In this document: positions 718 to 48,229 of the stretch, in pieces
Layout: the number at the start of each line of letters is the position of its first letter
Numbering within the stretch: the stretch's first letter is position 1
Notes under the pieces: model-generated
The model's database searches: none
Seen by the model: only the letters and a program-made list of their open reading frames with translations
Told to the model about the DNA's origin: nothing
Assembly: GCA_019636375.1 (NCBI GenBank)
Contig: JAHBXS010000002.1
Location: 1-64,000 of the forward strand
Length of the DNA stretch: 64,000 nt
From: Pirellulaceae bacterium
Lineage (GTDB): Bacteria; Planctomycetota; Planctomycetia; Pirellulales; Pirellulaceae
Reading direction: 5' to 3'
Translations under genes and position numbers: made by a program

Positions 718-1530
718 TTGGATTGTCAAACCAAAAATCTGGGTCAAAAGAGCTTGGGGAGTATTACGGTGTTTCGCCGATTTTCCGTTGTGTTCGCGAT
801 GGGCATTGCCTTGGCTGGCGGTAATGCAAGTGCATGCTCGGTGTCGAACTCAAGTGGTTCGGATTCTTCGCTAGAAATTTGGATTGAAATTGAGCATTTG
901 GAAAAAAGCCCCAGATTATCGATCGTGATTTCTTCGACTGAAAAAGTCGGCGCAGTGCAATTTGATTTGGTTTTTCCTGCCAACGATGTGCTTCAAAAGA
1001 TTGAACCAACAGAGCTGCTTTCATCAGGCTTGATGGAGTCCAATTTGATTCAGCCTGGGCGAATTCGCTTAGCCGTTGTTAGTAGCGAAGCGATTTTAGG
1101 AACTGGCGCCCTCGCAAAACTGACCTTCGATTACCTGTCAGTCTCGAATCCCGAATCAGAAATCCGCCTGGAAAATGTTAAAGGGTGGCATTTGGAGAGC
1201 CTAGAAGAAATTCATATCGAAGTTGGAGGGACAACTCTTATTGACTCAGAGACCGCACTGAGTCCGAATAAAAAAATCGACGCCCTGCTTCAGACAGATG
1301 AAAAAAAACTGGGCGGAGAGACTCTTCCAGGCTCTTTCGAGTCGATGGATCGCGGTGAAATTCGAAAAATGATCATCGAAATCATGCAAACAACGGAACC
1401 GATAACCCGGCCCGTGCAAATCGTATTGCCCGGTTGGATTTCCTTTGTAGGTGGTGCTGGCTCGATGTTGGCTCTTGTTCTGATGATTCAACTTTGTTGC
1501 TCGAAAAATCTATTATGGAGAAAGAAATGA
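718..1530 (+). CDS. Membrane-anchored cohesin-like protein
   Basis: This is a 270-residue exported protein, read from a TTG at 718; a later GTG or ATG near codons 25-28 is possible. A hydrophobic signal segment (about residues 22-38, ending NASAC) is followed by a beta-rich domain (about 50-170). Features such as 'GAVQFDLVFP' and 'LAKLTFDYLS' match the cohesin / carbohydrate-binding-module fold used in dockerin binding. A charged linker leads to a C-terminal membrane helix (about 239-262) ending in RKK, so the domain should face outward while tethered. Its stop overlaps the next start as ATGA, which points to translational coupling. The cohesin call rests on fold-like pattern only; a generic beta-sandwich is the alternative. 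Confidence 0.6.
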   Translation: MDCQTKNLGQKSLGSITVFRRFSVVFAMGIALAGGNASACSVSNSSGSDSSLEIWIEIEHLEKSPRLSIVISSTEKVGAVQFDLVFPANDVLQKIEPTELLSSGLMESNLIQPGRIRLAVVSSEAILGTGALAKLTFDYLSVSNPESEIRLENVKGWHLESLEEIHIEVGGTTLIDSETALSPNKKIDALLQTDEKKLGGETLPGSFESMDRGEIRKMIIEIMQTTEPITRPVQIVLPGWISFVGGAGSMLALVLMIQLCCSKNLLWRKK

Positions 1531-2945
1531 AACACTGCCTAACTTCTTTGATCGCAGGTTGTTTACTAGCAGTGACTGGGCCGGTTAGTATCGCACAGCA
1601 ACTCTTGATTGACTTGAAGGTCACCTTACAAAAAGAGTTGAGATGGTTGGATGATTCTTCGAAGCCTCCGACCGATTCAGACCGATTTGTCATTCCTGGT
1701 GCCGGTCAAGCCAAATTTACTTACAGCGGTGACCCTATGGTTGATGGCGGACAGTTGTTTGGCATTTCTTTAGAGTTTCCAGGCAGCGCAAGCGGCCTTC
1801 TTCCGGGCTCGACGGTTGATTCAAATGAAAAAGATCGAAAAAAATCCGTCGGTCAACCATTCGTGTGGATTTGGGTGCAGGAATTCCGCGAAGACCACAA
1901 AGGTACTGAGGTAATTTGCCATCTAAATGCGAGGCCAACGCATAAGTCGAATATCGAATGGATTTTTCCGGCACAAGATGCGCTGTTTCGAGTGGAATGG
2001 CTGGGTGACGGAAAGTCAGGAGGTGCGACTCACACAATTGCCGGAGTTTGGAAACACGGTGACGGCGGTGAAACCTGGACATTCACCGCGAACCCCGATG
2101 GAACATTCAAGGCTGAAGAACAAGGATTCGGTAATGCGCGAGGAACCGCCATGTTCTCCGGCAACAAAATTCACATCGAATACACAACTTCAGATGGAAC
2201 CAATGGCGAATACGATATTATCCTCGAACCGGACGGACGCTCGGGCAAGGGAACATGGACATCCGATTTGCCTGATTCCGGGACGCGGACATTTACAAGG
2301 GTTGAACCGATTGCTCCCACACAACCTCCTACCACAATTGACTCTAGCAAGTTCACGATTCAGGTTGCAGAGCATCGCCTAAACCCAGGTGAAACCAAAT
2401 CTATCCCCGTCGAGGTTCGGAATCCAGGGGATGTTTCGAATCTCAACATCTTGTTAGAGTTCGATCCCAGCGTGGTGAAGGTTCAGAGTAAACCCGCAGT
2501 CGGAAGTGTGGGTGGTCAGCGATTATTCGAAGCCAATTTCAGCGAGCCCGGGCTGGTTCGCTTGGGTTTTGCTGGCTCGACAGGCATCACACAAGATGGT
2601 GTTCTTGCAACCATTCCGTTTACTGCAATTGGTACCGCTGGAAATCGTACGCCAATCCACGCCAAAGTCACCCAAGCGAATCGATCGGATGGTCAAGCGA
2701 TAGAGGCTCAACTAATTCCAGGTACGATTGTGATTGTGGCGGGCGGCAAAGACTCGGAACCCGTTCAACCGCCACCTACTGTCGTTTCACCGCCTCGAAC
2801 CTTTACCACTGATGATGCTTTGAAGGCTCTTCGAATGTCAGTGAAGTTGTTGCCGGAAGATTTGGTGCTAGACGTTGATGAAAACGGCCAGATCACTTCC
2901 AACGATGCGCGGGTCATCTTAAAGCGTGTGACCAAACGCGAGTAA
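1527..2945 (+). CDS. Secreted cohesin-domain protein with dockerin half
   Basis: The protein has 472 residues. I chose ATG 1527 because GGAG (1517-1520) sits six bases upstream, a signal peptide follows (MKHCLTSLIAGCLLAVTG) and the ATGA overlaps the previous stop. The order is an unassigned N-terminal beta domain, a lipocalin-like repeat region with WTFTANPDGTFK, a cohesin-type domain (SIPVEVRNPGDVSNLNI to about IVIVAGG), a proline linker and a C-terminal segment with one calcium loop, DVDENGQITSND. The position where a first dockerin loop should lie holds only a proline/threonine linker, so this is half of a dockerin. It is a clear paralogue of the gene at 4889. Extracellular complex assembly is inferred, not shown. 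Confidence 0.7.
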   Translation: MKHCLTSLIAGCLLAVTGPVSIAQQLLIDLKVTLQKELRWLDDSSKPPTDSDRFVIPGAGQAKFTYSGDPMVDGGQLFGISLEFPGSASGLLPGSTVDSNEKDRKKSVGQPFVWIWVQEFREDHKGTEVICHLNARPTHKSNIEWIFPAQDALFRVEWLGDGKSGGATHTIAGVWKHGDGGETWTFTANPDGTFKAEEQGFGNARGTAMFSGNKIHIEYTTSDGTNGEYDIILEPDGRSGKGTWTSDLPDSGTRTFTRVEPIAPTQPPTTIDSSKFTIQVAEHRLNPGETKSIPVEVRNPGDVSNLNILLEFDPSVVKVQSKPAVGSVGGQRLFEANFSEPGLVRLGFAGSTGITQDGVLATIPFTAIGTAGNRTPIHAKVTQANRSDGQAIEAQLIPGTIVIVAGGKDSEPVQPPPTVVSPPRTFTTDDALKALRMSVKLLPEDLVLDVDENGQITSNDARVILKRVTKRE

Positions 2946-3029
2946 TGCAAACTGGTATTTCTAAAGCGAATTTCAATTTTTGATCAGCGTGTTCGTCAAC
3001 CTTCATTCAACCCACGATGGCCAATAAAT

Positions 3030-4838
3030 ATGTCTAACCAACTGTTAACTCGTTCAAGCCGGAAACTTATTTGGATTCCACTGATAGTTTTTGGATATTG
3101 TCTTGAACACAGAATCTTTGGGTTGGAAGCATGGGCGCAAGTGCCGACTGAAAAAGTCGAAAGTGGGCAACCGCCTGCCACACAAGATCGTCCCTTTTTC
3201 GGCGCGTTCTTGAAAGACGTTGATGACGAACAGGCTCGTGAGTTGGGAGTTACCGCGCTCAAGGGAGCAGTCATTACCCGCACGACAACCAATTCACCAG
3301 CCGCACAGGCCGGCTTGTTACCGGGAGATGTGATTATTGCCTGCGAGGGTGAACCGATTGACAACGCATTGGCTTTCTATCGCCTGTTTCGCAATCTCAA
3401 GCCGAGCCAAAAAATTAAACTGACGGTACTTCGAGGAGATCAAACACTGGAAACATCGTCCGTATTAACCACTTTGAAGATGCCAGTGCCTCAGCCAACG
3501 CCCACGCCGTCCGAGTCGGCCGTGGAAAAGCCCAAAGAGATGCCGGAAAGCATACCCGGACAGCAGATCGCTATGGCTTACACGCATCCCGAGTCGATCT
3601 TTCGAATTGAGATTCCGGCAGGTTGGCAGATCAACTACGGCATGAGAGGGCGCGTGCGTCAGGAAGGATTCGATACGCTGTCGCATGGAGCCACAGGCAC
3701 GTTCATGATTTGTCCTCACAAACCAATGCCGGGTTTACAAGGCATCGAGGGCTTGGAGGCATTTCGCCTTGAGCACCTCAAGACATTGGTGCACGAAGAG
3801 GTGCAGGCCACGGGGTATTCATTGAGTAAACTTGCCTGGATGGATATTTCTTACATCTCATCGGAAAGTGGTCAGCGTGTCGCGCGGCTGGCGACCTTTG
3901 CTCCGGACGGCAAGACCTATTTCTTCATGTTCGTTGGTCCGGAGAGCATGGAACAGCGAGCTTTTACCGAGTTGAAAACCAGTTTCCAGCAAGCGATTCG
4001 ATTCACGCAGCGACCGACTGATGTACTGACCAATAAACCGGAACTAAAAACCGTGCCCGAAACGGCTCTGCGGTTGAAGAATATTCTTCAATTGCAACCG
4101 CGTGTGGTTGGATTAACCGCAGTTTCTGCCGGGCACCAGAAAGCCATCGAATTAGGAATTGAAGCTTTTGCCGGTGCTGTGGTGACAGAAGTTCACGCCA
4201 ACACACCAGCCGCTCGCGCTGGGATGCATCCTAAAGACGTGATCGTGCAATTTGGTCTGCACGAAGTTCATACGCTCGAAGATTGTCAAGCAGCTATATG
4301 GACGTCCCCATTGAACTCGAATCAACAAGTCATTGCGGTTCGCGGAAATCAGCGTTTGAGGTTCGATCTCAGGATCGTTCCCGACGAAACTCAACGCTTG
4401 GTCAGCCAGCAATATCGGCATCCGACTGGCGGCTATCAGTTCAATTTCTTACCCCGTTGGAAACTGCATCCCAATGCTCGCCGAGACGAACGAACGAAGA
4501 GAGTTTACGATTTGATCGAGTCGGAATATGGCAGTTATCAAATCCATCTTTGCCAGGATCGTAAACCGGTGCTGGCTGCGGTCGATGCGTTGTATGACTT
4601 TATTGACGAAAAGAAACCAACCTTTCTTGATGGGAGTGAGACGGGTTGGTGCCGGATTGATCAGGTGCCAATGGCCTACGTTTCCGGACAGTCGCATCGC
4701 GGCCAATACACAGTGTACCGGATGGCTTTTGTGATCGATGGTTTTTTGTATGAAATCGATGTAACGGCTCCTTCGCTGACCGATCCGAGAACGCTGCCTT
4801 TGGCACTGCAAGCGACTCTTGGAAGTCTAAAAAAATAA
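3030..4838 (+). CDS. Secreted double-PDZ protein
   Basis: This 602-residue protein has an N-terminal hydrophobic export segment (about residues 12-30). It is built as a tandem duplication: PDZ 1 (about 56-145, with PAAQAGLLPGDVI), a PsbP-like alpha/beta domain (about 184-325), PDZ 2 (about 358-450, with PAARAGMHPKDVI) and a second PsbP-like domain (about 461-600). PDZ domains of this kind bind exposed C-termini, and in HtrA-type proteins they deliver substrates to a protease. No trypsin-like catalytic domain is present, so binding or scaffolding is the likelier role. It lies between the two cohesin/dockerin-type genes, which suggests shared function. The PsbP-like label is tentative. Confidence 0.7.
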   Translation: MSNQLLTRSSRKLIWIPLIVFGYCLEHRIFGLEAWAQVPTEKVESGQPPATQDRPFFGAFLKDVDDEQARELGVTALKGAVITRTTTNSPAAQAGLLPGDVIIACEGEPIDNALAFYRLFRNLKPSQKIKLTVLRGDQTLETSSVLTTLKMPVPQPTPTPSESAVEKPKEMPESIPGQQIAMAYTHPESIFRIEIPAGWQINYGMRGRVRQEGFDTLSHGATGTFMICPHKPMPGLQGIEGLEAFRLEHLKTLVHEEVQATGYSLSKLAWMDISYISSESGQRVARLATFAPDGKTYFFMFVGPESMEQRAFTELKTSFQQAIRFTQRPTDVLTNKPELKTVPETALRLKNILQLQPRVVGLTAVSAGHQKAIELGIEAFAGAVVTEVHANTPAARAGMHPKDVIVQFGLHEVHTLEDCQAAIWTSPLNSNQQVIAVRGNQRLRFDLRIVPDETQRLVSQQYRHPTGGYQFNFLPRWKLHPNARRDERTKRVYDLIESEYGSYQIHLCQDRKPVLAAVDALYDFIDEKKPTFLDGSETGWCRIDQVPMAYVSGQSHRGQYTVYRMAFVIDGFLYEIDVTAPSLTDPRTLPLALQATLGSLKK

Positions 4839-4888
4839 TTCAGGTAAAAATAATGATCCACCACGGCATTCTAGAGAGGGTTTTATCC

Positions 4889-6364
4889 ATGAACTTAACT
4901 ATCGCAGTCTCACGTATTTCCCGGGGCCTACTCACTGTTTACCTATTGATCGCTGCAGCATTCCTCCCGTCATCAACGGTCTTAGGGCAGAAAACTGGCA
5001 ATGCCGGTTTGCCACTGGAACTGAAAATCAGCACTCCCAAATATGTGGTTAAGGGGCCTGATGTTCACCAACAGATTCCAACCGAGCGAGGAGTGTTTCG
5101 AATTTCGGGGCCGGGGATTCTCCGGATCACTTGGATTGTAAAAAAAGACTTCGACGACTTTGCCCCTCGTGGCGGATTCACACTGTCTTGGCCGGGGCAG
5201 CGTCAAGCGACTTTTCCGGGCCGTCCGATTGGTCAAAGTTCAGAACCAGAGAAAGCATCAGCGGGCAAGCTTCAGAAATTTGTCTGGCTGTGCGAAATTC
5301 CGGCGGACGTCGCGGATATTCAATTCGATGCCACGCTGGGCGCCTATTGGTATCCGATCATGGATCAGAATCCCTGGGCGGGCATTGTCATTTATCCCAA
5401 CCAGCAAGCATTCCTGGTCGATTGGTTGGAGTCGTCAAGCGTGAAGAACCTGTCTGGCCGATGGTCTGGAAGCACGAGCACGGGTTTCGGAGTGGATATT
5501 ATCCTGCAGGAACAGGACGACAATCTCACCGGCACCTTGGGAGGTAATCCGATCACAGGCAAACGGAATTCCGACGGGACCATCGAATTCGTTTCGACGA
5601 CGCCCAAGCAAAGTTATCGCGGAACATTCAGTCCAGAGACCGGTACGATCAAAGGGACGTTCGACTGCGAAGTAACTCCGGCGAAAGACGTGGGCTGGGA
5701 AGCCACCCGAACGACGTTCGAGAACAACCCGATACTAGCCGGTGGCAATATTGAACTACCCACCGAACCGACTCATTTCCCGAGCGGAGCTCTAATCGTC
5801 CAATCCGGTTCGAGAAAGGTAAACGCAGGAGAGAATGTCCTGGTTCCAATCGAAGTATTGGGTGGGAAGGGTCTCGGCAACCTCAATGTGGTGATCGAGT
5901 ATGACAGCAAAGTTGCTCAAGTAAGTCAGAAAAGCAAAGCAGGTGAGATTCTAGCGGGCAAATTATTCGAATCGAATCCGCAAGACTCTGGAGTATTTCG
6001 TTTCGGATTCGCAGGTAATGAAGGACTAGCAGGCGATGGTGTCTTGACCATGTTGCCGATAACCGCCATCGGCAAGCCAGGAGAAAAGTCGCAGTTAACG
6101 GTAACCGTAACGGCCGCCAATGATTCGGATGGCCAGGCACTGGAGAGCACAGTGATTTCAGGCGAAATCGAAATTGTCTCAACCGGTGGGGCCGGCAGCG
6201 GAGACGTCAATGATGACGGCCTGGTCAATGCCCTGGACGCATTGGCTGCCTTGAGAATGTCAGTGAAGTTGATCCGAGAAAATATGGCCGCCGACATGGA
6301 TCAAGACGGCATCGTCACTTCCAATGACGCTCGACTGATCATGCTCAAATTCGTCGGACGATAG
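4889..6364 (+). CDS. Secreted cohesin-domain protein with full dockerin
   Basis: The protein has 491 residues from ATG 4889, chosen because GAGAGG (4873-4879) precedes it and a clean signal peptide follows (ending near STVLGQ). The ATG at 4853 would add 12 residues. An N-terminal beta domain is followed by a lipocalin-like section (GRWSGSTSTGF), a cohesin-type domain (VLVPIEVLGGKGLGNLNV onward) and a type I dockerin-like end. That end has two calcium loops, DVNDDGLVNALD and DMDQDGIVTSND. It closely parallels the protein at 1527, but here both dockerin loops are intact. Having cohesin-like and dockerin modules in one chain would permit self-assembly or chain formation; this is inference. Confidence 0.75.
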   Translation: MNLTIAVSRISRGLLTVYLLIAAAFLPSSTVLGQKTGNAGLPLELKISTPKYVVKGPDVHQQIPTERGVFRISGPGILRITWIVKKDFDDFAPRGGFTLSWPGQRQATFPGRPIGQSSEPEKASAGKLQKFVWLCEIPADVADIQFDATLGAYWYPIMDQNPWAGIVIYPNQQAFLVDWLESSSVKNLSGRWSGSTSTGFGVDIILQEQDDNLTGTLGGNPITGKRNSDGTIEFVSTTPKQSYRGTFSPETGTIKGTFDCEVTPAKDVGWEATRTTFENNPILAGGNIELPTEPTHFPSGALIVQSGSRKVNAGENVLVPIEVLGGKGLGNLNVVIEYDSKVAQVSQKSKAGEILAGKLFESNPQDSGVFRFGFAGNEGLAGDGVLTMLPITAIGKPGEKSQLTVTVTAANDSDGQALESTVISGEIEIVSTGGAGSGDVNDDGLVNALDALAALRMSVKLIRENMAADMDQDGIVTSNDARLIMLKFVGR

Positions 6365-39373: not shown

Positions 39374-40893
<1,520 letters not shown>

Positions 40894-42832: not shown

Positions 42833-42995
42833 CCCCAGTTTGTGGGCCTTCGCTCATCATGGGCATTTGATTTTTTCGGCATTCGTCGGACTTGGGGGCA
42901 GTTTACGCAAACAACAAAGCCCGCAAAATCGTCTTTCTCGATGGAACCCAACGGGAGCTAGGACCGGGAAATGTCCGCTTTTTCGGGGATTTTTG

Positions 42996-43024
42996 TTGAC
43001 CAATTTTTCGAATCCGAATATCCT
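42996..43024 (+). promoter_or_regulatory. Promoter of the giant surface protein gene
   Basis: TTGACC (42996-43001) and TATCCT (43019-43024) are separated by exactly 17 bases, about 100 bases upstream of the start codon at 43121. Confidence 0.55.
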
Positions 43025-43120
43025 AAAGGGAACTTTTTCGTCTATAACTGTTATGCCGTAGACGTAGTTTTTATCAATTTCGTTCTTAACCTCACTTCCA
43101 ATTTCACAGGACTGCTGCTC

Positions 43121-46100
43121 ATGAGTCGCAAGTTGTCACGCCATCGTTCACGCAAGAACAACACCATGCCGGTTAGAAAATCAAATCGCTTTTCTAGTTC
43201 TCTCGACTACTCCAAATTGGAAGATCGCCAATTGCTGGCAACGGATTTGGGGCTGAACCTTACCGCACACACGAAGGCGACTCACTCCGACGTTGAAGAC
43301 CCCAACATGGTCGGCGACATTGGCCCCACACATTACATCGAAAGCATCTACGATCGGATTTCGATCTTCAATCGCAACAACGGTGCACGCACGCTGAACA
43401 AAACCCCGAATCAATTTTTCGTTGACATCGGGGCGACCGTGACTTCGACAATCACAAACATCCAGGTCATATTTGACCGCTTCGAAAATCGCTGGCTGGT
43501 GCTTGGAGAAGGCAGCGGCGGTGGCAACTGGTTGTACTTGGGTATCTCGGAAACCTCGAATCCAATGCAAGGCTGGCGCTCGCTGCGATTCGTTGGAGAC
43601 TCGCAAGGGATTCGGCACAACGGCGAACTCAACATCGCGGTGGACGCAGATGCACTGATCATCACATCGCGGAACACCGGCACGATTGTGGGAATTCCGC
43701 TCAGCAGTTCGATCTACACGATTCCCAAGGCCAACTTGTATTCGGGAAATCCAACCCTCACCAACATGAGCCGGTTTGAGAATTTACCGCCGACTTTCTA
43801 CGGCGATTTCTTGCGACCTGCGATCAATTTCGGCGTTTCAGACAATCGCGCGACGATCTTGGGGAGTCGCGGTGTGAACTCGATTAAGACCGATATCACC
43901 GGCGTTCGAAATGCCGGAGCAACGCTGGGAATGCCTGTTGAAATTGATTTTAACCCTAGTGAACTGATTATCGACTTGCAAAATTTTGGTTTAGGCGCAA
44001 AACCACCTAACGCTCGTCAAGACCATGCAAATATCACGATAGATCCTTTTGTAAATACCACAGGCCCCAAAACGAACGCGCCTGACGTGATGAACAGTCC
44101 CTTCATTTATGATGGCGGGCTGTGGTTTGTGCAAGGAGCACGGGTGCAATACACCTCGGGTGTTGCACACGGTATTTTCTGGTACGAAGTCGATCGCAAC
44201 ACGAATCAATTGTTGCAAGCTGGTGTCGTCCCGCCTCCTGCGATTGGGCAACCGCATGAGTGGGATATGTACAACCCTTCGTTTTCGATTAACAACTTTG
44301 GTTTGTTGCAAGTCAATTACACCGTCTCCAGCCGTCAGAACAACGTTAATCCAACGGCTGCTTCTTCGATCGCCCAACATGTTAACGGGTTGGCAATTTA
44401 CGACCCGATCTTCGACACAATTTATTACAACAACGAAGAACCGGGCAAGGAAAGTCGCAACACTCAGTTCGAGCGACCGCAGTTTATCCAAAACGGCTTG
44501 TCGGTTTACAACAACAATCCAACCAACATTTCAAGCTGGAGTTGGCGTGCATCAGCCGGATGGGACCCCACGAACTACAACCGCTTTTGGGCCAGCACTC
44601 AGTGGTCAAACACCCAATCGCGATGGAGCACCCAAGCGACTCAATTGATCCCCGTCGATATGGAGCCGATCATTACGGCTGACGACAACGACAATTTCAT
44701 CGTGATTCGCCGCAAAGCTGGCTCGCCCGAATTGATGGAAATTGAAATTGACGGACGCGTCACCGATGTTTTGCCTTATGAGCCATTGGGACGAGTCATT
44801 ATCAATGGATTTGATGGCGACGATGTGTTCTTTATCGACTACTCCAACGGCGACCCAATTCCAAAGAACGGTTTGGAGCTGAACGGGATGCGAGGCGCGA
44901 ACCGGCTAGAGACCAACAATCCAGCGGGAAGTTACTTCCTGGTTAATGGAAATTTCCGCAATATCTACAATCAGGCGACACAGGGGTCTGGTCTTTACAA
45001 TAACAAGACTGGATTTACGGGAATGACCGATTTGCATGGCGGCCCGGGTCCTGATACTTTCGAGGTTACGGACGTTTGGAACCTAAACCAACCGCAACAG
45101 CCCTACACACGAATCTCGCAAGGCTATCTCCCTGGATCGATGGTTGGTAATGGTGGCGACGACACATTTAAATTTTCCGAGCTAGGTGCGATTGGGGACA
45201 GCATCGATGGGGGCTCTGGCTTCAACACTTTGAGCTTTGAAAATCGTTGGGCTGGTGGACCGAAACCTGAGTTTGGTGGACGCCAAGACGCGCCGGTGAT
45301 CATTCAATTAATTGGCCCATCAGAAAACGGTGGCTTTGATGGATTCGGACCAAACGATCCGATGTGGGTTCCTGCGGTAGTAAGTCCTCTGGGGAACGAT
45401 CCTGGTCAAGACGGTGACTTGTTCCGCAACATCAACTTTGTTCGCGGCGGTCTATTCTCTTTCCAAGACGTGCGGGGAACTGACGATCAAGCCTACGTTT
45501 TCGTCGATGACGAGAATTCTTATTACGAAGCTGGCGGTGGTCGCTTGGGCTTCTTCCAAATCAACGGAATTTCTGGCTCAAATTTCGACGACCACTTTGA
45601 GGCAATTCGCAACACCGTGGACCCGCTGTTCTTAAGGGGCCGAGGTGGCAACGATCTGTACGAGTTTGGAAATAACGGCAATACCGCAGAACTCCGCGGG
45701 CTGTTATTCGCAGAAGGCGGATCGGGTGCCAATATCATGCGGGTCGATAACCGCAATGGTCAAGCTGTCGATGCCCTGATCCTCAACAACCGTTTTTCGG
45801 GTGGATTAGGCGAAATCGGTTACTCGGCTGTTGGCGGCAACTTTGCGTTGACCGTTTGGGCTTCCGAGTTTGCCGATCACATTGACCTGCACTCGTTCTT
45901 CTTCACGAATACGCTCGACCTCTATCTGCTTGGCGGCAATGACACCATGTCGATTCAAGACTTGAGCAAGGCAGTGATCAATATTTACGGTGGCGCTGGT
46001 GATGACATCTTCACGATCGAAAAGATTCAAGGAATTGACCTGCGAAACTTGTCGATCATCGACAGCGTTAACGCTGAGCGAGACCGAGTCCAGTTACGGG

Positions 46101-48229
46101 GCACGATTCTCGATGAGGTCTTCACGATTGGGCAAAGTACCTTTGATGACCTGAACCTTGTAATGATCGGAATCGAATGGTTCGGCCTAGAAACAATGAA
46201 CGGAAACGACATCATCAACTTGACGGGCTTCGATTTCGAGTTCTACGTCAACACAGGCAACGGAAATAACATCATCAACATCTCATCGAATGCCCCGACT
46301 AATACGGGTCATACCAATGGGTTCTCGAAGCCGATCACGATTGAGACCGGTAATGGACGAAATGAACTGCGGGTTTCCAACCAATCTGGTAGCGGTCGCA
46401 ACGTGCAGATTCACAACAACCAAATAGTTGGGATGTTGGACGCCCCGATCTTCTTCGATTCGGGTGCAGGCCGCTTCGATCTAGCGTCTGGTATCGGTGG
46501 TATCACCCTGTGGGGCTCTAATACCGGTAATGACACGTTCACCGTGCTCGGTCTAAATGTCGATGACTCATTGCGAATCTTTGGTGGCGGCGGCAATGAT
46601 GCGTTCGTCGTTGCAGCAAATGCCTTGGGTAGTATCGAACTTGATGGCGGAGCAGGGACCGACTCGTTTGCTGTCAATTTGGTAAACTCGACCTCGACAT
46701 CTCGTGCCGTCCGCGTGCGTGATGACGCTACGGGCTCACTAACTGTTAACGGAACCGCTGGCACCGACGTGATGAGTTTGGTCTCGGGTAGTCTTTCTCG
46801 AGGCAATCAAACCGTTCAGTTGTTGACATCGATCAATGATTACAACATCTTTGGTCTAGGTGGAAATGACACGATCTCGATCAACTGGTCGACCGGCGTT
46901 GCTGAGATGAATGTCATGGGTGGTGACGGCAACGACACGATCAGTTTGAACGTGACCCAACCCACAACCTTTGCCACGATTTTGGGTGGAAACGGTGATG
47001 ACAGCTTGAATATCGGGCCCAATGTTTCCGGCAACGTTTTAGTAGACGGACAAAACGGCAACGATCGTACTTGGGTTAGATTCCAAAACTCAGGTAATCG
47101 CCAAGTCGATGCTCGTGACACCGGAACGACTGGCTCCAATCAAGACGTCTTATTCGTTGTTGGCTCAGCAGGAAATGACCAAATCGAACTCCGTTCCAAT
47201 GTGGTCAATCGCCAAGATCAACGTGTTCAATACGATGTCAATTCAAACCGATTGATTGTGCAAGGACTCTCTGGTGACGACACGATTGACGTGTACGGAT
47301 CAGTCGCGGCAACGACACAAGTGCAAGGCGGAACCGGAAATGATCGCATCAATGTCTTTTCAACGACTGGTGCGACTCAATTGACGCTCGACGGCAATGA
47401 TGGCGACGACCAATTCTTGGTGGTACGTACGGCAGTGGAAACCAACACGATCCTTCGTGGCGGCGGCGGTGACGATCGCTTTAACATTGGTTCTACGTTC
47501 GAAGAAAACAGTGGGAATCTTGGGTTGATGCGAGGCCGTATCAAGGTCGAAGGGAACACAAGTACTCCTGGCGGTGAAGACCGGTTGTATATCAACGACT
47601 TTAACGTCAATGTGCCTTACAACTACCTTGTCACGCCTACGGCCGTTCGCGGTTTCGCAGGTCCAAACAACGTGCCTCGGCCGCAGTTCGCTGGGATTTT
47701 CTTTGACGGAACAATGGAATTTGTCCGCTTGGATGGAACGATTGCACCAAACTGGTTCTCCGTTTTCCCAAGCCAAAATACTCGATTCTATTTGGATGGA
47801 AACCTCCCCAGCCCACTTGTTGGAGCCGGTGACACGGTGTTCCTCAACGTTTCGCCAGGTGACGGTCACCAATTGACGATCACCGATGCCCCACGAGGTC
47901 GCGGATTCTGGTCGTTTACCAATGGGAATCAAGAGGTTCGGTTTGACGGCATTGAAACAACGTTGACCGGTGGCGGCGGTGGGTTCACGGGTTTGATGCC
48001 TCCACTTAATCCTTCCAACGGTGAAGACGAAGGTGGAAGCGGTGGTGGGTTCATGTTCTTTGCTCCATCAATTGTTGGGGTCGAGAACTCCGATTTAGGT
48101 TTTGATTCCTTGGCCGGTTCGATCTCGCTCGACGACAGCCTCGGCCTGTGGGACGAAACCTCGCTGGCATCGAGCGACTTGGATTTGGCAATTGCCTTAA
48201 TCGGCGACGACTTGAACCTCGAAGTTTGA
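43121..48229 (+). CDS. Giant calcium-binding-repeat surface protein
   Basis: The protein has 1,702 residues from ATG 43121 (MSRKLSRHRSRKN). Next comes the planctomycete export motif LEDRQLLATD (residues ~33-42), which stands where a signal peptide would be. Residues ~60-520 form an unassigned extracellular domain. A region of RTX/hemolysin-like calcium repeats follows, densest around ~1150-1460 (GGNDTISINW, GGDGNDTISLNV, GGNGDDSLNIG, GGAGTDSFAVNL). The C-terminus is acidic (SLDDSLGLWDETSLASSDLD), without PEP-CTERM. Calcium is probably bound outside the cell. A strong terminator follows. Confidence 0.85.
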   Translation: MSRKLSRHRSRKNNTMPVRKSNRFSSSLDYSKLEDRQLLATDLGLNLTAHTKATHSDVEDPNMVGDIGPTHYIESIYDRISIFNRNNGARTLNKTPNQFFVDIGATVTSTITNIQVIFDRFENRWLVLGEGSGGGNWLYLGISETSNPMQGWRSLRFVGDSQGIRHNGELNIAVDADALIITSRNTGTIVGIPLSSSIYTIPKANLYSGNPTLTNMSRFENLPPTFYGDFLRPAINFGVSDNRATILGSRGVNSIKTDITGVRNAGATLGMPVEIDFNPSELIIDLQNFGLGAKPPNARQDHANITIDPFVNTTGPKTNAPDVMNSPFIYDGGLWFVQGARVQYTSGVAHGIFWYEVDRNTNQLLQAGVVPPPAIGQPHEWDMYNPSFSINNFGLLQVNYTVSSRQNNVNPTAASSIAQHVNGLAIYDPIFDTIYYNNEEPGKESRNTQFERPQFIQNGLSVYNNNPTNISSWSWRASAGWDPTNYNRFWASTQWSNTQSRWSTQATQLIPVDMEPIITADDNDNFIVIRRKAGSPELMEIEIDGRVTDVLPYEPLGRVIINGFDGDDVFFIDYSNGDPIPKNGLELNGMRGANRLETNNPAGSYFLVNGNFRNIYNQATQGSGLYNNKTGFTGMTDLHGGPGPDTFEVTDVWNLNQPQQPYTRISQGYLPGSMVGNGGDDTFKFSELGAIGDSIDGGSGFNTLSFENRWAGGPKPEFGGRQDAPVIIQLIGPSENGGFDGFGPNDPMWVPAVVSPLGNDPGQDGDLFRNINFVRGGLFSFQDVRGTDDQAYVFVDDENSYYEAGGGRLGFFQINGISGSNFDDHFEAIRNTVDPLFLRGRGGNDLYEFGNNGNTAELRGLLFAEGGSGANIMRVDNRNGQAVDALILNNRFSGGLGEIGYSAVGGNFALTVWASEFADHIDLHSFFFTNTLDLYLLGGNDTMSIQDLSKAVINIYGGAGDDIFTIEKIQGIDLRNLSIIDSVNAERDRVQLRGTILDEVFTIGQSTFDDLNLVMIGIEWFGLETMNGNDIINLTGFDFEFYVNTGNGNNIINISSNAPTNTGHTNGFSKPITIETGNGRNELRVSNQSGSGRNVQIHNNQIVGMLDAPIFFDSGAGRFDLASGIGGITLWGSNTGNDTFTVLGLNVDDSLRIFGGGGNDAFVVAANALGSIELDGGAGTDSFAVNLVNSTSTSRAVRVRDDATGSLTVNGTAGTDVMSLVSGSLSRGNQTVQLLTSINDYNIFGLGGNDTISINWSTGVAEMNVMGGDGNDTISLNVTQPTTFATILGGNGDDSLNIGPNVSGNVLVDGQNGNDRTWVRFQNSGNRQVDARDTGTTGSNQDVLFVVGSAGNDQIELRSNVVNRQDQRVQYDVNSNRLIVQGLSGDDTIDVYGSVAATTQVQGGTGNDRINVFSTTGATQLTLDGNDGDDQFLVVRTAVETNTILRGGGGDDRFNIGSTFEENSGNLGLMRGRIKVEGNTSTPGGEDRLYINDFNVNVPYNYLVTPTAVRGFAGPNNVPRPQFAGIFFDGTMEFVRLDGTIAPNWFSVFPSQNTRFYLDGNLPSPLVGAGDTVFLNVSPGDGHQLTITDAPRGRGFWSFTNGNQEVRFDGIETTLTGGGGGFTGLMPPLNPSNGEDEGGSGGGFMFFAPSIVGVENSDLGFDSLAGSISLDDSLGLWDETSLASSDLDLAIALIGDDLNLEV

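What the first reader, a model, noticed from the sequence alone, without database searches (positions are those of the whole stretch)
718..6364. Four-gene cohesin/dockerin/PDZ surface-assembly cluster
Visible order: a membrane-anchored cohesin-like protein, a soluble protein with cohesin plus dockerin half, a duplicated PDZ protein, and a soluble protein with cohesin plus full dockerin. The first two overlap as ATGA. No glycoside hydrolase is present, so this is not a cellulosome. A small, self-assembling surface complex with a membrane anchor and PDZ adaptor would fit. Cohesin-dockerin binding is established in cellulosomes; assembly here is inference.
Basis: partly seen in the sequence, partly recalled or inferred. 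Interest (0 to 1): 0.68.

Follow-up and report, generated by a model that had tools for sequence, protein, structure and literature searches.

The report
Membrane-tethered cohesin–dockerin gene pair
A planctomycete carries a small set of neighbouring genes for what looks like a membrane-anchored plug-and-socket protein complex unrelated to cellulose digestion; its two-gene core recurs side by side in scattered relatives, which makes a long-standing question about such proteins testable.

Summary
Bases 718-6364 carry four same-strand genes: g1, cohesin-like domain plus C-terminal hydrophobic helix; g2 and g4, apparently secreted proteins with cohesin and dockerin (first dockerin loop lost in g2); g3, two PDZ domains. 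g1/g2 overlap as ATGA. g1's domain misses Pfam, but a low-confidence single-sequence model matches the Archaeoglobus fulgidus cohesin 2xdh first.

The four-gene order is not conserved; the core pair is. A membrane cohesin ("mem") lies beside a cohesin-dockerin protein ("sol") at 12 of 13 distinct loci including the window; the thirteenth is cut by a contig end. Mem and sol cohesins separate in a tree (12 of 12; 14 of 14). In 8 genomes, all 13 cohesins that Pfam detects lie at the pair locus, though Pfam misses some pair cohesins. PDZ is adjacent in 2 of 12 loci.

Best explanation: sol's dockerin binds mem's cohesin and tethers sol's variable domains to the outer face of the cytoplasmic membrane. 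Nothing here tests binding; the precedent is A. fulgidus ORF2375/ORF2376. It is a new variant of a known kind, not a cellulosome. Placement on the cell surface and a PDZ adaptor role are not shown.

The parts
718..1530 (+). g1 (mem): N-terminal hydrophobic segment, cohesin-like domain, linker, C-terminal membrane helix. Start codon uncertain (TTG 718 is the longest).
   Evidence: hydropathy; relatives
868..1257 (+). cohesin-like domain of g1
   Evidence: model pLDDT 56.5; Foldseek best match 2xdh E 2.6e-4, ranks 1-8 cohesins or cohesin-like; hhalign; no Pfam hit; no cohesin by phmmer on PDB
1444..1500 (+). hydrophobic segment of g1 (residues 243-261), the likely membrane helix, followed by a 9-residue tail with 4 K/R
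   Evidence: hydropathy
1527..2945 (+). g2 (sol): N-terminal hydrophobic segment, unnamed N-terminal beta region, cohesin, degenerate dockerin; ATG overlaps g1 stop (ATGA)
2034..2228 (+). middle region of g2, sub-threshold resemblance to DUF5640
   Evidence: E 0.013, below cut-off
2355..2729 (+). cohesin domain of g2
   Evidence: PF00963; phmmer to 2xdh 1.3e-4
2802..2942 (+). degenerate dockerin of g2: first calcium loop lost, second loop kept
   Evidence: alignment; no Dockerin_1 hit
3030..4838 (+). g3: two-PDZ protein with an unnamed region after each PDZ; not part of the conserved core
   Evidence: relatives without detectable cohesins beside them
3195..3455 (+). first PDZ domain of g3
4104..4370 (+). 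second PDZ domain of g3
   Evidence: (two stretches)
4853..6364 (+). g4 (sol): paralogue of g2 (31% identical over 499 columns) with cohesin and complete dockerin; start could be ATG 4889
5807..6175 (+). cohesin domain of g4
   Evidence: PF00963; Foldseek
6200..6340 (+). dockerin of g4, the only Dockerin_1 match in the genome at E 0.001

Best explanation
It is a membrane-tethered, non-cellulosomal cohesin-dockerin module. The mem protein (g1) is exported, keeps its cohesin on the outer (periplasmic) face of the cytoplasmic membrane and is held by a C-terminal helix. The sol proteins (g2, g4) are exported; a C-terminal dockerin plugs into mem's cohesin and so holds sol's variable N-terminal domains at the membrane. 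Because each sol carries its own cohesin, usually only a few residues before the dockerin, a docked sol offers a new socket, so a short head-to-tail chain could grow from mem. In this window g4 (full dockerin) would be the efficient docker or chain unit and g2 (one loop lost) a weaker docker or end-cap. SHOWN: domains, fold, hydropathy, adjacency, separation of the two cohesin kinds, Pfam-detectable inventory. INFERRED: export, binding, calcium dependence, chain growth, roles of g2 versus g4, cargo function.
For: Core pair at 12 of 13 distinct loci, the 13th (G882) cut by its contig end, under 10 family labels. Three of these (G854, G907, G846) come from a later sample not used to form the idea. 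ATGA overlap in 4 of 12 (window, G094/G1037, G488, G668), in both gene orders. Tree: 12 of 12 mem cohesins and 14 of 14 sol cohesins are each one side of a branch (support 97/92 and 91/80), and the genomes split 5/7 the same way on both sides, weakly supported among mem (83/54). C-terminal hydrophobic segment in 12 of 12 mem and 0 of 14 sol; K/R exceed D/E at the start of the tail in 11 of 12 mem. All cohesins that Pfam detects at E 0.001 in 8 genomes (own 2; 11 in 7 others, G094 left out as a mixed bin) lie at the pair locus, and the own genome has one Dockerin_1 place, g4, so the likeliest partners are here. Cohesin-dockerin linker of 3-7 residues in 11 of 14 sol (my reading). Precedent: A. 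fulgidus dockerin of ORF2375 with cohesin of ORF2376, reported strong and specific (PMC9705933, passages).
Against: No binding was tested and no complex was modelled. g1's cohesin is divergent (no Pfam hit; no cohesin by phmmer; model confidence low). Pfam inventories are incomplete: PF00963 saw 12 of the 16 pair cohesins of eight genomes (missed G029 mem, G094, G393 and G574 sol) and two of three in the window, so unseen cohesins elsewhere in these genomes are possible; PF00404 likewise missed the pair dockerins of G029, G188, G393 and G668. Matrix correlation between mem cohesins and sol dockerins is weak (r 0.28-0.29, p 0.05-0.06) and shared ancestry could explain it. With 2xdh added, support for the sol group falls to 60/73 and the 5/7 split among mem is unresolved. 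The pair is rare (a strong sol hit in 4 of 396, 5 of 392 and 6 of 248 genomes; samples overlap) and P0004 finds nothing in 4 of 4 congeners, so it is not essential. Cohesin-like matches outside such pairs exist: 37 of 392 genomes match the mem model at E 0.001, only 5 of them strongly. G393 has 43 dockerin places outside the locus, whose partners are unknown.
Confidence: 0.58

Rival explanations
1. Cohesins here are structural beta-sandwich or adhesion domains that no longer bind dockerins; adjacency reflects a duplicated gene, and the dockerin is a calcium-stabilised C-terminal cap.
For: g2 and G668 sol have lost the first calcium loop, and loops of G188 (first) and G393 (second) carry substitutions; g1's cohesin is strongly diverged; mem G029, mem G000, mem G188 and sol G668 have long branches.
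Against: 12 of 14 sol dockerins keep both loops in recognisable form, with conserved helix positions (my reading); the pair stays together under 10 family labels while the gene order flips.
Confidence: 0.2
2. The dockerin binds the cohesin of its own polypeptide or of another sol copy, giving a self-associating sol polymer, and mem is only a nearby paralogue that caps or competes.
For: Cohesin and dockerin lie on one chain in all 14 sol; in matrix tests sol cohesin and sol dockerin track each other best (r 0.72-0.73, p 1e-4), though being one gene suffices to explain that.
Against: Linkers of 3-7 residues in 11 of 14 make folding back look awkward (inference, not modelled); the reported A. fulgidus pair binds between proteins.
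Confidence: 0.15
3. A general docking site (compatible with the best explanation): in dockerin-rich genomes the pair's cohesins capture many secreted dockerin proteins, as a small scaffold does.
For: G393 has 43 Dockerin_1 places, none at the pair locus, but its only Pfam-detected cohesin is there; G488 has a third gene with dockerin and PASTA domains next to the pair.
Against: The 5 of 43 G393 dockerins that I read have another helix sequence (DAxxxxxxWG against DALxALKMSV); own genome, G029, G188 and G610 have no Dockerin_1 place outside the locus.
Confidence: 0.1
4. The first reader's four-gene surface complex with g3 as PDZ adaptor.
For: g3 lies between g2 and g4, 14 bases before g4; G188, whose mem groups with g1 (93/79 and 97/74, with a long-branch warning), has a small PDZ gene right after its mem (L065:7964-8428, PDZ_6 1.1e-9).
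Against: PDZ adjacent in only 2 of 12 loci, several of them cut close to the pair; the 14 genomes checked hold 11-41 PDZ_6 matches each; g3 relatives occur in stretches without detectable cohesins.
Confidence: 0.12

Closest known systems
Archaeoglobus fulgidus ORF2375/ORF2376 non-cellulosomal cohesin-dockerin pair (structure 2xdh)
   Same: Consecutively numbered genes; dockerin in ORF2375 (residues 432-506) and cohesin in ORF2376 (29-162) (PMC9705933 passages). 2xdh is the best PDB sequence match of both kinds of planctomycete cohesin profile (1.2e-16 for mem; 4.2e-18 for sol).
   Different: That ORF2375 also carries a cohesin, and which ORF 2xdh comes from, are recall; whether ORF2376 has a membrane helix was not tested. 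Zinc-ribbon tails and the planctomycete cargo domains were not compared with it.
Planctosome proposed for freshwater Nemodlikiaceae (PMC6461901, passages)
   Same: Planctomycete; cohesin and dockerin on one adaptor protein; no role in cellulose proposed.
   Different: There the anchor is a 2,210-residue lamin-tail/P-domain protein and the dockerin clients are peptidases; here the anchor is a small one-helix protein and the own genome has one detected dockerin.
Clostridial cellulosome
   Same: Cohesin and type I dockerin domains.
   Different: No multi-cohesin scaffoldin and no dockerin-bearing glycoside hydrolase detected: two Pfam cohesins and one dockerin in the genome.
Cohesin/dockerin proteins of ANME archaea (PMC9012536, section 32 read)
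   Same: Cohesins and dockerins in organisms without a cellulose role; function open.
   Different: There up to five cohesins per protein, and transporter binding proteins with dockerins.

Membership tests
Cohesin domain (PF00963) | Match over curated cut-off, g2 and g4 | tested here: met
   g2 44.3 and g4 35.6 bits against 24.1
Cohesin domain (PF00963) | Match over curated cut-off, g1 | tested here: not met
   No hit for g1; the other 8 of 9 mem proteins hit at E up to 0.1. Filed as cohesin-like by fold and kinship only.
Cohesin domain (PF00963) | Cohesin fold, g1 | tested here: met
   2xdh first, E 2.6e-4, ranks 1-8 cohesins or cohesin-like; model confidence low
Type I dockerin (PF00404) | Two calcium-loop repeats | tested here: met
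   g4 only; g2 lacks the first loop and the Pfam hit
Cellulosome | Scaffoldin with several cohesins | tested here: not met
   Two Pfam cohesins in the genome, on separate proteins
Cellulosome | Dockerin-bearing carbohydrate-active enzymes | tested here: not met
   One Dockerin_1 place in the genome, g4, with no catalytic domain found
A. fulgidus-type non-cellulosomal pair | Adjacent cohesin-only and cohesin-plus-dockerin genes | tested here: met
   12 of 13 distinct loci, the other cut; that ORF2375 has a cohesin too is recall
A. fulgidus-type non-cellulosomal pair | Dockerin of one binds cohesin of the other | not testable with these tools
   No two-chain modelling; reported for A. fulgidus
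A. fulgidus-type non-cellulosomal pair | Membrane anchor on the cohesin-only protein | not tested
   Hydrophobic segment in 12 of 12 planctomycete mem proteins; A. fulgidus ORF2376 was not examined
Planctosome | Lamin-tail anchor and dockerin-bearing peptidases | tested here: not met
   No such domains in the four proteins; one Dockerin_1 place in the genome, without a peptidase domain

The most novel reading that the evidence does not exclude
The pair is an ancient bacterial transmembrane nucleator or sensor: sol subunits chain outward from mem through cohesin-dockerin links, and mem reports occupancy to the cytoplasm. Four of 12 mem proteins (G393, G488, G610, G846) carry paired CxxC motifs, zinc-ribbon-like, after the helix, on the cytoplasmic side if the topology reading is right. 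That would be a use of cohesin-dockerin binding for signalling or templated assembly rather than enzyme display.
Probability: 0.12. Interest if true: 0.78.

Novelty: new variant of a known kind. Interest (0 to 1): 0.5.

Why it matters
What cohesins and dockerins do outside cellulosomes has stayed open (PMC5244752, 2017, passages, says the function is not known). A two-gene unit that recurs side by side, and that holds every cohesin Pfam detects in the genomes checked, narrows the usual ambiguity about partners: few cohesins, few dockerins, one locus. It is a small system in which non-cellulosomal binding, membrane tethering and chain growth can be tested with a handful of purified domains. It could also add binding pairs for protein engineering, for which the A. 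fulgidus pair is already used (PMC9705933 and PMC6394049, passages).

Tried and rejected
Rejected: cellulosome and planctosome (see membership test). Rejected: conserved four-gene order. Rejected: G094 as an independent locus. Its contig is essentially the same as one in G1037 (12,970 of 14,740 31-mers occur in the 13,000 bases fetched), so one bin holds a foreign contig; its cohesins group with G574, G846, G854 and G907, three of these four drawn from the class sampled with G1037. I count it once and drop G094 from the inventories. Set aside as other architectures: cohesins in proteins of about 1,640-2,250 residues (G285, G577, G734, G038, G175, G097; three of these six are in the tree and lie apart), the middling hits (G991, G875, G873, G865, G853, G845; E 1e-11 to 1e-16) and the many weak ones. 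The limit of E 1e-20 for a strong hit was set after seeing the gap in the lists. In some searches only the best 7-13 first-look candidates per genome were scored, so some loci may be missed. One search (class of G488) held only 2 genomes and gave nothing new.

Led nowhere: full-length g4 model from two sequences (mean pLDDT 38.3), useful only for its cohesin; the N-terminal domains of sol remain unnamed (A5 against PDB matched only cohesin and dockerin stretches at E 0.01). The genome-contig scan returned one KSB1 locus. The reciprocal mem search is circular: its 5 strong hits are all in the model. Alignments A7 and A8 misaligned g1's N-terminus and were not used. Promoter-like sites were fewer than in shuffles (4 against 7.7) and terminator-like sites more (14 against 8.3); no operon ends could be set. 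Peer et al. 2009 is not held. Confidence in the best explanation was lowered from 0.60 to 0.58 on recounting how many pair cohesins Pfam misses.
Full report
WHAT IS THERE. Four same-strand genes fill 718-6364. g1 (718-1530) has an N-terminal hydrophobic segment, a beta domain, a linker and a C-terminal hydrophobic segment at residues 243-261 with a short K/R-rich tail. g2 (1527-2945) starts at an ATG that overlaps g1's stop as ATGA. g3 (3030-4838) holds two PDZ domains. g4 (4853-6364) is a paralogue of g2, 31% identical over 499 alignment columns. Pfam finds Cohesin in g2 and g4, Dockerin_1 in g4 only, nothing in g1. g2's C-terminus keeps the second dockerin loop but not the first. The window starts at base 1 of contig C2 of its assembly, 5.24 Mb in 8 contigs, so upstream context is lost. 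The 16S gene at 39384-40893 carries perfect sites for the probes PLA46, PLA886 and EUB338-II and none for EUB338-I; the probe sequences and their planctomycete meaning are recalled. This agrees with a planctomycete; the genome is otherwise unnamed.

IS g1 A COHESIN? By curated cut-off, no; nor does phmmer of g1 on PDB sequences find a cohesin. By fold and kinship, yes. A single-sequence AlphaFold model of its domain, free of alignment bias but of low confidence (pLDDT 56.5), finds 2xdh first in the PDB (E 2.6e-4, the only match under 0.001) and cohesins or cohesin-like modules at ranks 1-8. Of the nine mem proteins first collected, eight hit PF00963 (E up to 0.1; best 1.5e-15) and g1 is the miss. 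Profile comparison of those nine against the sol cohesin-dockerin alignment gives 98.6%; g1 alone 75%, E 2.5e-5.

WHAT IS CONSERVED. I searched for g4 or the sol cohesin-dockerin part in 149 genomes of the family, 396 of the order, 392 of the phylum and 248 of the class of G668. Most hits are weak; I took as strong those below E 1e-20 that cover both domains, a limit set after seeing a gap in the lists. These are G029, G094, G188, G393, G488, G610, G574, G668, then G1037, G882, G854, G907, G846. G094 and G1037 hold the same contig, so with the window there are 13 distinct loci. In 12 a mem gene (cohesin, then C-terminal hydrophobic segment) is immediately beside sol. In G882 sol begins at the contig end, no mem lies downstream in the stretch fetched, and upstream cannot be seen. 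The order is mem then sol in 4 (window, G094/G1037, G854, G907), sol then mem in 7 (G029, G188, G393, G488, G610, G668, G846) and convergent in 1 (G574). An ATGA overlap occurs in 4 of 12: window, G094/G1037, G488, G668. The idea formed on the first nine loci; G854, G907 and G846 were independent tests and agreed, G882 could not be judged. A looser relative in G853 has two ATGA-overlapping cohesin genes without a dockerin hit. Four of four congeners lack a match to g4.

SHARED INHERITANCE. In a tree of 12 mem, 14 sol and 3 other cohesins, the mem cohesins are one side of a branch (97/92) and so are the sol cohesins (91/80); in both, G094, G574, G846, G854 and G907 separate from the rest, with weak support among mem (83/54). 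Adding partial 2xdh keeps mem (96/96), weakens sol (60/73), and leaves the split within mem open; mem G188 with g1 may be long-branch attraction. Matrix correlations are modest: mem cohesin with sol cohesin r 0.32-0.34 (p 0.02-0.03), mem cohesin with sol dockerin r 0.28-0.29 (p 0.05-0.06). So the two cohesin kinds are old and distinct; finer co-evolution is not shown.

INVENTORY. The own genome has two Pfam cohesins, both here, and one Dockerin_1 place, g4. In eight relatives all 12 Pfam cohesin places at E 0.001 lie at the pair locus; leaving out G094 it is 11 in 7 genomes, 13 in 8 with the own. This is a lower bound: the same search saw only 12 of the 16 pair cohesins of those eight genomes (missed G029 mem and the sol of G094, G393 and G574) and two of three in the window. 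Dockerin places: G029 0, G188 0, G610 1 (the pair), G574 2 (one in the pair), G668 1 (elsewhere), G488 4 (two at the locus), G393 43 (none at the pair), G094 34 (one in the pair; bin mixed); again the pair dockerins of G029, G188, G393 and G668 are below the cut. The five G393 dockerins that I read (of 43) and four of G094 (of 34) have other helix sequences than the pair's. G854, G907, G846 and G882 were not inventoried. Other cohesin-like matches exist in the phylum: 37 of 392 genomes match the mem model at E 0.001, 5 of them strongly.

MECHANISM. The A. fulgidus pair is the guide: the dockerin of ORF2375 and the cohesin of ORF2376 were chosen as the most specific and strongest pair and used for attachment on E. 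coli (PMC9705933, passages). 2xdh is the nearest PDB sequence to both planctomycete cohesin profiles. By analogy sol docks on mem. All 12 mem proteins have the C-terminal hydrophobic segment and 0 of 14 sol do; at the same threshold an N-terminal segment is seen in 8 of 12 mem and 10 of 14 sol, one of the four other sol (G574) being cut at its N-terminus. The first 20 tail residues have more K/R than D/E in 11 of 12 mem (G846 has two of each), which puts the cohesin outside the cytoplasmic membrane. In 11 of 14 sol the dockerin starts 3-7 residues after the last cohesin strand (my reading), so a docked sol would present its own cohesin as a further socket: chain growth is possible but inferred. 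The cargo varies: among ten sol, one has CBM96, one PD40 and one DUF4214 (which does not name the member; by reading, G393 for CBM96 and G574 for the others); G907 has PD40, DUF4214 and a laminin-G-like domain; otherwise there is an unnamed N-terminal beta region. Four of 12 mem tails hold paired CxxC motifs (G393, G488, G610, G846); three of nine mem proteins hit Pfam zinc ribbons (G846 not scanned).

PDZ. g3 sits in the middle of the cluster. G188 has a small PDZ gene right after its mem. My PDZ profile found no other adjacent PDZ gene in 14 fetched loci, the nearest being in G574 about 3.9 kb from its mem; the flanks of G610, G393, G574 and G854 are cut close to the pair. A tblastn of g3 against the pair loci gives one further hit, to a FecR-domain gene in G188, outside the PDZ parts (2.5e-6). 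With 11-41 PDZ_6 matches per genome, two adjacent cases in 12 loci is suggestive at most.

KNOWN OR NEW. Non-cellulosomal cohesins and dockerins are known in diverse bacteria and archaea (PMC9012536), and in planctomycetes a different complex has been proposed (PMC6461901, passages). I saw no description of this membrane-cohesin/cohesin-dockerin pair in planctomycetes in the listings of searches of the open-licence library or in the passages opened; subscription papers are missing from it, so this is weak evidence of absence. I rate it a new variant of a known kind.

Noticed in passing
L009 (G094:C290) and L178 (G1037:C267): Two genomes of different families hold essentially the same ~14.8 kb contig (12,970 of 14,740 31-mers shared with the 13,000 bases fetched), so one bin is contaminated; by reading its ORFs (no search run) it carries a nitrate-reductase-like cluster beside the pair.
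   Followed up: partly
L067:8609-10930: Third gene next to the G488 pair: dockerin followed by two PASTA stretches, a possible extra docking partner.
   Followed up: no
L066, L067, L068, L182 (mem genes): Zinc-ribbon-like paired CxxC tails after the membrane helix of a cohesin protein in 4 of 12 mem proteins.
   Followed up: partly
L184:6100-8492: G853 has two ATGA-overlapping cohesin genes, both with C-terminal hydrophobic segments and no dockerin hit.
   Followed up: no
L071, L072, L073: Proteins of about 2,000 residues with two cohesins around a weak dockerin-like stretch, a separate cohesin group in the tree.
   Followed up: no
L126:6003-6602 (G516): Small cohesin-like protein with a lipoprotein-like N-terminus (my reading) and no sol gene found in the 10.6 kb fetched.
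   Followed up: no
L065:2593-4611 (G188): FecR-domain protein with a short stretch like the non-PDZ part of g3 (blastp 2e-8), about 4 kb from the pair.
   Followed up: no
window 39384-40893 (-): 16S rRNA gene; ARAGORN found no tRNA in the window.
   Followed up: no
window 42971-48229 (+): 1,752-residue ORF without a Pfam match at E 1e-4.
   Followed up: no
window 718-1530: g1 (813 bases) has lower G+C (0.456) than any of 81 1,400-base stretches sampled downstream in the window (minimum 0.474); the lengths differ, so the comparison is rough.
   Followed up: no
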